A stretch of DNA of 64,000 nucleotides, taken from contig NC_133666.1 in the NCBI RefSeq assembly GCF_037893015.1, forward strand, positions 654,276,957 to 654,340,956, written 5' to 3'. Below the pieces are notes generated by a model, which saw only the letters and a program-made list of their open reading frames with translations, did no database searches and was not told the DNA's origin. The translations under genes were made by a program, and so were the position numbers. Positions 16,301 through 19,300 of the stretch are shown here, one piece after another. Numbering within the stretch: position 1 is the first letter of the stretch; the number at the start of each line of letters is the position of its first letter. This DNA comes from Macrotis lagotis. Lineage: Eukaryota > Chordata > Mammalia > Peramelemorphia > Peramelidae.

Positions 16301-19300
16301 CTTAGAATGCAGCCAAGAATGAACTACCCAGCAAGGCTGAATGTCCTCTTCCAGGGAAAAAGATGGACTTTCAATGAATCAGGGGAATTTCAAATGTTCC
16401 TTTTGGAATGGCCAGAGCTGAACAGAAGGTTTGATCTTCAGATACAGGACTTAGGTGAAAAATGGAGATGGGAGGAGAGGAGGGAAATATGAGGGACTTA
16501 ATGAGGATGAACTGCATGTATAGAAAAATGATACTGATAATATTCATATGAACCATCTCAGTTAATAGAGCAGGTAGAGGGAGCTTTTATAGTTGAAGCA
16601 CAGGAGAAAGCTGAATTCGAAGATAAAATATGGTGTAAAAATGGAGTCAATAGAAAAAAAAGGGAAATGAAATAGGAGAAAGAAAAAGGAGAGGGGGAAT
16701 AGTCCAAGATATTTCACATAATAAGATTTTTTTTATTACAATGAGCTATTGCAATGATATGGAAGTGGGGAGGCAAGGGGGAATGAGGGAACCTTCGCTC
16801 TCATCAGAGATGGCTAGGAGAGGAAACAGCATATATACTCAATGGGGTATAGGCATCTGGAGTAAGAAGGAGGGGGGAGCAGGGGGAAGGGGTGGGGATG
16901 TGAATAAAGTAGGAGAGGATGGACCATGGTGGGACAGTGGTCAGATGTAACCCATTTTCTTTCTTACTTCTTGCAAGGGGCTGGGATTGGAAGGCTTGCC
17001 CAGGACCACAGGGCCAGGTGGATTGTGGGCCTAAGGGGTGGTATGGGGGCTCAGGGCTTCTTGGCCCCAGGACCAGGGATTTGTCTGCTGCACCACTCAG
17101 CGACCCTACAGCAGAGTCAGAGTGAAAGAAGAGAGAAAATATAGTACATGGTAGTGGAGAAATAAGAAAGGAGGGAGTTGTGATCAGCAATGGCGACGGT
17201 GGAAAAATATGGAAGTAACTTTTGTGATGGACTTATCATAAAGAATGAGATCCACCCATGACAGAGTTGTTGGTGTTGGAACAAAGACTCAAGAACATTT
17301 TTGTTATTATTATTTGGGGGAGGGTGCAGGGCAAGTGGGGCTGGGTGGCCTGCCTGGGGCCACATAGCAGGGTGATCTTTGGGTGTCTGGGGCTGGATTT
17401 GGACCCAGGTGCTCCTGGCTCAAGGTCCAATGCTCTGTCTGCCACCCAGCCACCCCTACTATTATTACTATTTTATTTTATTTTGGGTCTTTTTTTTCTT
17501 TCTTTTTTTTGGTTTTTGCAGGGCAGTGGGGATCGGGTGGCTTGCATGTCACAGGGCTGGGTGATTGTTGGGTTTACGAGGCTGGATATGGGCCCGGGTG
17601 CTCGTTGCTCCAGGGCTGATGCTTCGTCCATTGCGCCACCTGGCCATACCTACAATTATTACCATTAATTTTTTATTTTAATTTTTTTCTCTCCCCTTTA
17701 CTTTTTTCGCCCAAGCAAGTCTATCTATATTCATGGGGGAGGAGGGGTATTTTGTTTACTTGTAAACAAGAATATTTTATTAATGTAAAAAAACATTTGT
17801 ACAAAATGAGAATAAAAAATAAATTAAAAAAAAGTTATTGAGGAGAAGAATGCTTTAAAAAGCAGAATTGGCCAGATGGAAGAAGAGATAAGAAAGCTCT
17901 CTGAGGAAAACAAATCCTTCAGAGAAAGAATAGAACTCAGGGAGATTGATGAATTTATGAGAAATCAGGACTCAATACTTCAAAACCAAAAAAATGAAAA
18001 ATCAGAAGAAAATGTGAAACATCTCACTGAAAAAACAACTGGTATGGAAAACAGATTTAGAAAAGATAATTTAAAAATTATTGGAATACCTGAAAGTCAT
18101 GATCAGAAAAAGAGCCTTGATATCATTTTCAAAGAATTACTACAGGAAAATTGCCCTGATATCCTAGAAGCAGAGGGCAAAATAGAAATGGAGAGAATCC
18201 ACCAATCCCCCTGAGAAAGAGATACCCAAAAACCAACCCCCAGGAATGTTATAGCCAAGTTCCAGCACTCCCAAGTCAAAGAAATATTACAAGCAGCCAG
18301 AAGGACACAATTCAAATATCATGGAGCTGCAGTCAGGATCACACAGGACTTAGCAGCAACTACATTAAAAGCTCGTAGGGCTTGGAATATAATATACTGG
18401 AAGGCAAAAGAGCTTAGAATGCAACTGAGAATCAACTACCCAGCAAAACTGAATATCCTCTTCCAGGGAAAAAGATGGACTTTCAATGAACCAGGGGAAT
18501 TTCAAATGTTCCTGTTGGAATGGCCAGAGCTGAACAGAAGGTTTGATCTTCAAATACAGGACTCAGGTGAAGCATAGAGATTGGAGGAGAAGGGGAAAAT
18601 ATGAGGGACTTAATGATGATGAACTGCATATATTCCTGTATGGAAAAATGACACTGATAATACTCATATGAACGTTCCCAGTTAATAGAGCGGGTAGAAA
18701 GAGATTTTATAGATGAAGCACAGAAGAAAGCTGAATTTGAAGATGAAATATGGTGTAAAAATGGAGTCAATAGAAAAAAGGGAAATGTAATGGGAGAAAG
18801 AAAAAGGAGAGGGGGAATAGGCCAAAATATTTCATATAATAAGATTTTTCTTTATTACAATGAGCTATTGCAATGATAGGGAAGGGGGGAAGGCAAGGGG
18901 GAATGAGGGAATCTTCGCTCTCATCAGAGGTGGTTAGGAGAGAAAACAGCATATATACTCAATGGGGCATAGACATCTGGAGTAAGGAGAGAAGGGGGAC
19001 AGGGGGAAGGGGTGGGGATGTGAATGAAGGAGGAGAGGATGGACCACGGTGGGAGAGTGGTCAGATTTAACATTTTCTTTTTTACTTCTTGCAAGGGGCT
19101 GGGATTGGATGGCCTGTCCAGGACCATAGGGCCAAGTGGATGCTGGGCCTAAGGGGTGGTATGGGGGCTCGGGCCTCTTGGCGCCAGGGCCAGGGATCTG
19201 TCTGCTGTGCCACTCAGCTACCCTACAGCAGAGTCACGGTAGTGGAGAAATACGAAAGGATGGAATTGCGATCAGCAATGGCAATGGTGGAAAAATATGG

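What the first reader, a model, noticed from the sequence alone, without database searches (positions are those of the whole stretch)
16971..17650. Three antisense SINE-like blocks built into the half-LINE 3' region
Blocks A, B and C each follow the antisense tRNA-SINE from the cttgcaaggc...tggggtt edge through cttgcccaaggccacacag to ccactgtgccacctagc, yet are more GC-rich and more diverged than the SINEs scattered around. Both half-LINE copies carry the same three blocks at the same spacing, so they were part of the element before it spread. A LINE-derived element that permanently carries three SINE modules, all in antisense, is not something I recognise as described. It may recruit factors, pair with SINE RNA, or simply be an old SINE cluster caught by an L1 whose ORF2 it replaced.
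Basis: partly seen in the sequence, partly recalled or inferred. Interest (0 to 1): 0.72.

Follow-up and report, generated by a model that had tools for sequence, protein, structure and literature searches.

The report
Half-LINE with hypermutated antisense SINE modules
A marsupial-like jumping element that keeps only one of its two genes carries three backwards copies of another jumping element in its tail, and these show a one-sided A-to-G mutation pattern that looks like RNA editing copied back into DNA.

Summary
Two ORF1-only L1 (HAL1-like) copies, one nested in the other, are separate insertions with their own target-site duplications. Both carry three antisense copies of the SINE scattered through the window. 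Each of six block copies out-scores all 500 of its shuffles.

On the HAL1 sense strand, at positions where both copies agree, 43 of 74 adenines of the antisense SINE became G, against 14 of 92 T>C. In 31 ordinary window SINEs the same change is 17 of 864. Among 86 sites called in all three blocks, the changes common to all three are 7 A>G and nothing else.

Best explanation: HAL1 RNA paired with sense SINE RNA, ADAR turned A into inosine, and L1 reverse transcription fixed G. The neighbour preference fits ADAR only partly: C before A protects, but G before A does not.

The plan resembles SVA, whose Alu-like domain is two antisense Alu pieces. Whether the structure is fixed in the family is untested: only two copies were seen, and the own-genome search did not complete (11 tries).

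The parts
14708..17828 (+). Inner HAL1-like element: 5' UTR, interrupted ORF1, 3' UTR with blocks A-C, A-rich tail
   Evidence: 15-bp target-site duplications 14693-14707 and 17829-17843; ORF1 domains
14693..14707 (.). Left target-site duplication of the inner element
17829..17843 (.). Right target-site duplication of the inner element
13646..14707 (+). Outer HAL1-like element, 5' part (split by the inner insertion; includes one copy of the inner target site)
   Evidence: matches 14715-15730 at 80%; target-site duplication 13630-13645
17844..20101 (+). Outer HAL1-like element, 3' part, with its own blocks A-C and a later SINE
   Evidence: 17829-19884 matches 15717-17793 at 87.5%; target-site duplication 20102-20117
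15914..16492 (+). ORF1 C-terminal half of the inner element: L1 RBD-like and dsRBD-like domains
   Evidence: Pfam Transposase_22 E 2.9e-13, Tnp_22_dsRBD E 8.4e-7
16972..17105 (-). Block A, antisense SINE (inner)
17325..17455 (-). Block B, antisense SINE (inner)
17512..17650 (-). Block C, antisense SINE (inner); its T-rich tail complement lies just upstream
19087..19214 (-). Block A, antisense SINE (outer)
19419..19550 (-). Block B, antisense SINE (outer)
19606..19745 (-). Block C, antisense SINE (outer)
19893..20046 (+). Later sense-strand SINE inserted into the outer element, about 150 bp downstream of block C; predicted to form a hairpin with it
   Evidence: fold with 112 C:SINE pairs, -217.6 against -131.3 +/- 5.2 in 30 shuffles

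Best explanation
SHOWN: an ORF1-only L1 element carries three antisense SINE modules in its 3' UTR, present before its two copies here inserted. The modules carry a strand-specific excess of A>G on the element's sense strand. INFERRED: SINEs of the window's common family landed backwards in the 3' UTR of a HAL1 source element. HAL1 RNA then formed double-stranded RNA with sense SINE sequence, either in trans with abundant SINE RNA or in cis with a neighbouring sense SINE. ADAR deaminated adenines in the duplex to inosine, and when this RNA was reverse transcribed by L1 machinery the inosines were copied as G. One or more such episodes gave the G-rich modules, and the edited version became the source of later copies. 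B and C look like a tandem duplication of one module plus flank, or an insertion with a long target duplication. A may be a separate insertion.
For: A>G 43 of 74 against T>C 14 of 92, G>A 6 of 93 and C>T 10 of 93, on the HAL1 + strand, at the 352 of 404 aligned positions where both copies agree. Each block alone shows it: 15/27, 12/22 and 16/25 A>G (Fisher P 0.0016, 0.009, 0.0002). The 31 control SINEs give A>G 17/864 and T>C 40/1043. Transversions rise only from 128/4106 to 23/352, about twofold, while A>G rises about 29-fold. Polarity: T (SINE strand) stands in at least 25 window SINEs at 22 of the 23 A>G sites (at site 51 only 18 of 30), and in a recalled MIR sequence at 18 of 19 alignable sites. 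Leaving out sites 44 and 51 gives 38/68 against 14/92. Outside contexts that would make a CpG: 38/51 against 9/59. Locality: the A-B spacer is 37.6% A and the UTR before A 36.6% A, while the blocks are 12-17% A against 21% expected. Among 86 sites called in all three blocks, shared changes are 7 A>G and 0 other; B+C shared are 3 A>G and 1 other; private changes are ordinary (A>G 4 of 30). Adenines after T or A are hit 31 of 39, after C 5 of 23; by site, U/A against C, Mann-Whitney P 0.003. Duplex with sense SINE RNA is still strong: -149 to -207 kcal/mol, shuffle means -88 to -92. The outer copy shows how easily a cis partner arises: a sense SINE beside block C.
Against: The hallmark ADAR depletion of G just 5' of the edited A (passages of PMC3197674, PMC2873906, PMC5625713) is not seen: 7 of 10 such adenines changed, though they come from 4 sites, one of uncertain polarity. 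U/A against C+G by site is only P 0.016. T>C is also raised about fourfold over controls, which this model does not explain. No sense-SINE partner is found elsewhere in the inner element, so the duplex partner is inferred. Opossum hyper-editing in brain is low (2926 sites in Table 1 passage of PMC5625713). No RNA data were available. After the two copies split, A>G is not in excess (7 A>G, 5 T>C), so any editing was in the past. Only two copies were seen. The ancestral sequence of the spacers is unknown, so locality rests on composition.
Confidence: 0.6

Rival explanations
1. The blocks come from an undescribed or older SINE subfamily that was already rich in C at these positions, so the pattern is inherited and not editing.
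For: Site 44 is C in the recalled MIR sequence and site 51 is polymorphic (T 18, G 12) in window SINEs. With the T columns removed, block A groups weakly with an older set of window SINEs (support 0.535-0.872) and B and C with others, so the sources may be different subfamilies. I had no library of marsupial SINE consensus sequences.
Against: At 22 of 23 sites at least 25 window SINEs have T, and recalled MIR has T at 18 of 19. Two of the sites (59, 60) fall in the B box, which a Pol III-driven SINE needs (recalled). A subfamily difference should not be confined to one of twelve substitution types: among changes shared by all three blocks, 7 of 7 are A>G.
Confidence: 0.15
2. Natural selection, not editing: the 3' UTR was selected to lose A and gain G, for G-quadruplexes or to keep pairing with SINE RNA through G:U wobble.
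For: The antisense SINE consensus has no G4 motif, while block A has one in both copies, B in the inner and C in the outer copy. A>G is the cheapest change for pairing: 15 random A>G leave -302 of -307 kcal/mol, against -271 for C>T, -252 for T>C and -214 for G>A.
Against: Selection for G should also raise T>G and C>G: 7/92 and 3/93 against 15/1043 and 11/1103 in controls, far less than A>G. Keeping a pair can spare changes from removal but cannot lift A>G about 14-fold above the transversion pace, and C>T, the next cheapest, is not raised (10/93 against 104/1103). The blocks are not better conserved between the two copies (0.895, 0.885, 0.835) than the spacer or ORF1 (0.900, 0.918).
Confidence: 0.13
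3. An ordinary strand-biased mutation process of the source locus (transcription-coupled repair, or a biased reverse transcriptase) acted on the whole element.
For: Strand asymmetry favouring A>G on the transcribed element's sense strand is known in kind for germline-transcribed DNA (recalled).
Against: Known asymmetries are far weaker (recalled). Spacer and upstream UTR remain about 37% A. After the split of the two copies no A>G excess is seen.
Confidence: 0.07
4. A passive accident without function: SINEs landed in a source HAL1 and were carried along; the base changes are noise of a small sample.
For: No sign of constraint on the blocks. Only two element copies.
Against: The passive-cargo part is compatible with the best explanation and may well be true. 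The noise part is not: Fisher P 1e-8 pooled, 4e-4 counting each site once (23/29 against 12/36), and significant in each block alone.
Confidence: 0.05

Closest known systems
HAL1 (half-L1) retrotransposons
   Same: L1-type ORF1, no ORF2 found, A-rich tail, target-site duplications of 15 and 16 bp, so mobilised in trans (definition in passages of PMC5322556).
   Different: Three antisense SINE modules in the 3' UTR. I could not read the HAL1 family paper (Bao and Jurka 2010, not held) or any repeat library, so a catalogued opossum HAL1 may already contain this stretch unremarked.
SVA (SINE-VNTR-Alu) composite retrotransposon
   Same: L1-dependent element whose Alu-like domain is derived from two antisense Alu fragments; base pairing with Alu RNA has been predicted, and is argued not to be required (passages of PMC4859970).
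   Different: No hexamer, VNTR or SINE-R seen on reading the sequence; keeps an L1 ORF1; three modules, in the 3' UTR, from a tRNA-type SINE.
SINE1_Mdo (short-CORE SINE of the opossum)
   Same: The window's common SINE has the expected tRNA-plus-short-CORE layout and is the evident source of the blocks. SINE1_Mdo has about 600,000 copies in opossum (passages of PMC3403934).
ADAR hyper-editing of paired SINEs in transcripts
   Same: Clusters of A-to-G only, in SINE sequence able to pair with an inverted copy (passages of PMC3197674).
   Different: Here the changes are in genomic DNA of a mobile element and shared by copies, so inherited. G before the edited A is not depleted.

Membership tests
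HAL1 (ORF1-only L1) | L1 ORF1 domains present | tested here: met
   Transposase_22 E 2.9e-13 and Tnp_22_dsRBD E 8.4e-7 in 15914-16492
HAL1 (ORF1-only L1) | no ORF2 | tested here: met
   About 1.3 kb between the ORF1 stop (16492) and the element end (17828); five 3'-region ORFs give 0 Pfam families at E 0.1
HAL1 (ORF1-only L1) | A-rich tail and target-site duplications | tested here: met
   15 and 16 bp duplications; A-rich ends
HAL1 (ORF1-only L1) | match to a catalogued HAL1 family | not testable with these tools
   No repeat library on hand; family paper not held
SINE1_Mdo | blocks are copies of the same SINE as the window's dispersed SINEs | tested here: met
   End-to-end alignment including the 3' end, 0 of 500 shuffles in each of six
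SINE1_Mdo | match to the published consensus | not testable with these tools
   No consensus library; name recalled
SVA | antisense SINE-derived domain | tested here: met
SVA | hexamer repeat, VNTR and SINE-R | tested here: not met
   None seen on reading 13400-21000; no dedicated repeat search was run. It works like SVA at most in one part and is not an SVA
ADAR-edited RNA | one-type A>G clusters on one strand | tested here: met
ADAR-edited RNA | G depleted 5' of the edited A | tested here: not met
   7 of 10 (4 sites) changed
ADAR-edited RNA | U or A favoured 5' and G favoured 3' of the edited A | tested here: inconclusive
   5': U 17/20, A 14/19, C 5/23. 3': G 16/23, A 13/19, T 6/12, C 8/18
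ADAR-edited RNA | double-stranded substrate in vivo | not testable with these tools
   Only predicted pairing with SINE RNA

The most novel reading that the evidence does not exclude
A HAL1 lineage whose RNA repeatedly pairs with the host's own SINE RNA through three built-in antisense modules. A-to-I editing of these duplexes, fixed by reverse transcription, has shaped its 3' UTR. Since A>G turns A:U pairs into G:U, editing could change the sequence while keeping its ability to hold SINE RNA, so the modules could persist as a SINE-RNA-binding device (ribosome docking, competition for L1 machinery, or a decoy for ADAR and dsRNA sensors).
Probability: 0.15. Interest if true: 0.85.

Novelty: new variant of a known kind. 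Interest (0 to 1): 0.6.

Why it matters
If true, RNA editing would be a heritable mutator of a retrotransposon lineage: host ADAR marks left in DNA by copying an edited transcript back into the genome, and carried by later copies. APOBEC marks in retroelement DNA are known (passages of PMC2873906); I found no report of the ADAR counterpart fixed in a LINE family in the held library, which is not proof of absence. The claim can be tested at once in public opossum assemblies by counting substitutions in many copies. It also adds a second, unrelated case of an L1-dependent element carrying antisense SINE pieces, useful for asking whether pairing with SINE RNA helps such elements move.

Tried and rejected
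Segmental duplication as the origin of the second copy: rejected, since each element has its own target-site duplication and one is nested in the other's ORF1. Base composition alone: rejected by shuffles. CpG decay as the reason why C-A sites escape: not favoured, since T>C at TG, which would also make a CpG, is as frequent (5/31) as elsewhere (9/59); small numbers. An internal sense-SINE partner in the inner element: not found (score 132 within 10 shuffles of 122-174; tail 47 against 65-92 in 5). A single ancestral edited SINE for A, B and C: undecided. The all-column tree joins the blocks (0.977), but the clade vanishes when T columns are removed; A carries G at site 51 while B and C carry C; and with C-A sites treated apart, 7 shared A>G sites against 5.3 expected is P 0.09, against P 0.001 without that stratification. 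Constraint on the blocks: none seen. Searches for more copies: exact 22- and 24-base patterns gave 0 in viral contigs and 0 in genome contigs, and a distant search of phages gave no match; these collections are not marsupial DNA, so this says nothing about the family. ARAGORN and Rfam (gathering) gave 0 in the window.

Rows set aside: 52 of 404 aligned block positions, where the two copies differ, were left out of the 43/74 count; 3 of 34 non-block SINE hits (23808, 62287, 62602), short ones, were left out of the control; 22 of the 31 control SINEs also made the consensus, which lowers their apparent divergence but should not create strand asymmetry. The control itself has a small opposite asymmetry (A>G 17/864, T>C 40/1043, P 0.02).

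Full report
What is there. The window holds an L1-derived element that keeps ORF1 only. In the inner copy, 15914-16492 carries the L1 ORF1 RBD-like and dsRBD-like domains (Transposase_22 E 2.9e-13; Tnp_22_dsRBD E 8.4e-7). About 1.3 kb follow before the A-rich end, and five ORFs from the 3' regions of the two copies give no Pfam match at E 0.1. The ORF1 reading is broken into two ORFs (15383-15892 and 15914-16492).

Two independent insertions. Element 14708-17828 sits inside ORF1 of an older element (13646-14707 plus 17844-20101), with a 15-bp target-site duplication at 14693-14707 and 17829-17843. The older element has its own 16-bp duplication at 13630-13645 and 20102-20117. The shared stretch is 87.5% identical over 2109 aligned positions. 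Both are full-length insertions, so the three blocks were part of the element before either copy was made. With two copies I cannot say that the structure is fixed in the family; the own-genome search did not complete (11 tries).

The blocks are antisense SINEs. A consensus from 22 window SINEs aligns with each block end to end, including the SINE's 3' sequence ahead of its A tail. Scores run from 219 to 361, while the best of 500 shuffles per block is 178 or less. B and C also share about 45 bases of flank beyond the SINE's 5' end, which suggests a tandem duplication, or an insertion with a long target duplication. A shares little flank with them, and site 51 hints at a different source SINE.

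The new observation. Taking the 352 of 404 aligned positions where both element copies agree, and reading changes on the element's sense strand, 43 of 74 A became G, against 14 of 92 T>C, 6 of 93 G>A, 10 of 93 C>T and 23 transversions. The 31 control SINEs of the window, read in the same way, show A>G 17/864, T>C 40/1043, G>A 112/1096 and C>T 104/1103. So A>G is raised about 29-fold, while transversions are raised about twofold and T>C fourfold. Each block shows it alone (P 0.0016, 0.009, 0.0002). Counting each site once, 23 of 29 A sites against 12 of 36 T sites changed (P 0.0004). A pairwise aligner gives the same picture copy by copy (A>G 10-17 of 25-28; T>C 4-6 of 30-36).

Polarity and context. 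At 22 of the 23 sites at least 25 window SINEs carry the unchanged base; site 51 is polymorphic (18 of 30). Without sites 44 and 51 the count is 38/68 against 14/92. Outside CpG-making contexts it is 38/51 against 9/59. Adenines after U or A are hit most (17/20, 14/19), after C least (5/23), after G 7/10 from four sites. ADAR disfavours a 5' G (passages of PMC3197674, PMC2873906, PMC5625713), so this last figure is against me. PMC3197674 does report ultra-editing as relatively more common at GAA and GAG and less at CAC than ordinary editing; here GAA is 3/3, GAG 1/1 and CAC 1/10, but AAG, which it reports as less common, is 10/11.

Timing and place. Among 86 sites called in all three blocks, changes common to all three are 7 A>G and nothing else; B+C share 3 A>G and one other; private changes are ordinary, A>G 4 of 30. 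After the two elements parted there is no A>G excess (7 A>G, 5 T>C). This looks like past bursts. If the blocks share one ancestor, one early burst suffices. If they are separate insertions, as the tree without T columns weakly suggests, the same favoured sites were hit more than once; with C-A sites treated apart, 7 shared sites against 5.3 expected is P 0.09. The blocks are 12-17% A, while the A-B spacer is 37.6% A and the UTR before A 36.6% A; since spacer ancestry is unknown this is an argument from composition only. The B-C spacer is 70% T and tells nothing.

Mechanism. Shown: antisense modules, strand-specific A>G, present before two insertions. Inferred: pairing of HAL1 RNA with sense SINE RNA, deamination by ADAR, reverse transcription of inosine as G by L1 enzyme, and spread of the edited version. 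Pairing is plausible: predicted duplex energies with SINE RNA are -149 to -207 kcal/mol against shuffle means of -88 to -92. No sense partner lies elsewhere in the inner element, so the partner was in trans or next to the source. The outer copy shows how a cis partner arises: a later sense SINE at 19893-20046 is predicted to pair with block C over 112 base pairs. A>G hardly weakens pairing with SINE RNA (15 random A>G: -302 of -307), so edited modules can still bind it. One A>G (site 132) turns CAA into CAG after the T-rich stretch of block C, giving a splice-acceptor-like site in both copies (17519, 19611). Whether any of this serves the element is open: the blocks are no better conserved than their surroundings.

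Comparison. HAL1 elements are defined by ORF1 only, tail and target-site duplications (passages of PMC5322556) and arose several times (passages of PMC5753468). SVA has an Alu-like domain from two antisense Alu fragments; pairing with Alu RNA has been predicted, and the review argues that it is not a requirement (passages of PMC4859970). This element is HAL1-like by the features tested and SVA-like only in carrying antisense SINE pieces. The window's SINE looks like SINE1_Mdo of opossum, by recall; the Tasmanian devil paper gives about 600,000 opossum copies (passages of PMC3403934). Hyper-editing has been detected in opossum brain, at low count and with a motif the authors call poorly determined (passages of PMC5625713). 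My ten answered paper searches listed no paper that I recognised as describing antisense SINEs in a HAL1 or ADAR marks fixed in a LINE family; I judged by titles, abstract starts and the passages named, and the key HAL1 paper was not held.

Noticed in passing
17519 and 19611: Block C of both copies has a pyrimidine tract (0.9 and 0.8 of 20 bases) followed by CAG: a splice-acceptor-like site created by an A>G change, reminiscent of antisense Alu exonisation.
   Followed up: partly
16872-16897 and 18879-19017: G-rich purine tract with G-quadruplex motifs in the 3' UTR ahead of block A in both copies, like the L1 3' UTR tract (recalled).
   Followed up: partly
17456-17700 and 19552-19790: About 45 bases after blocks B and C are similar to each other, as if block plus flank had been duplicated; the bases next to the SINE 5' end (CCTAC) are shared by all three blocks.
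   Followed up: partly
45070-46467 (-): Open frame with a KN motif (Pfam PF12075, E 1.2e-21), so probably an exon of a KANK-family gene (name recalled).
   Followed up: no
24951-26865, 33996-35036: GC-rich stretches (about 0.6-0.76 GC per kb) with long open frames on both strands and no Pfam match at E 0.001 in the four frames scanned there; perhaps CpG islands.
   Followed up: no
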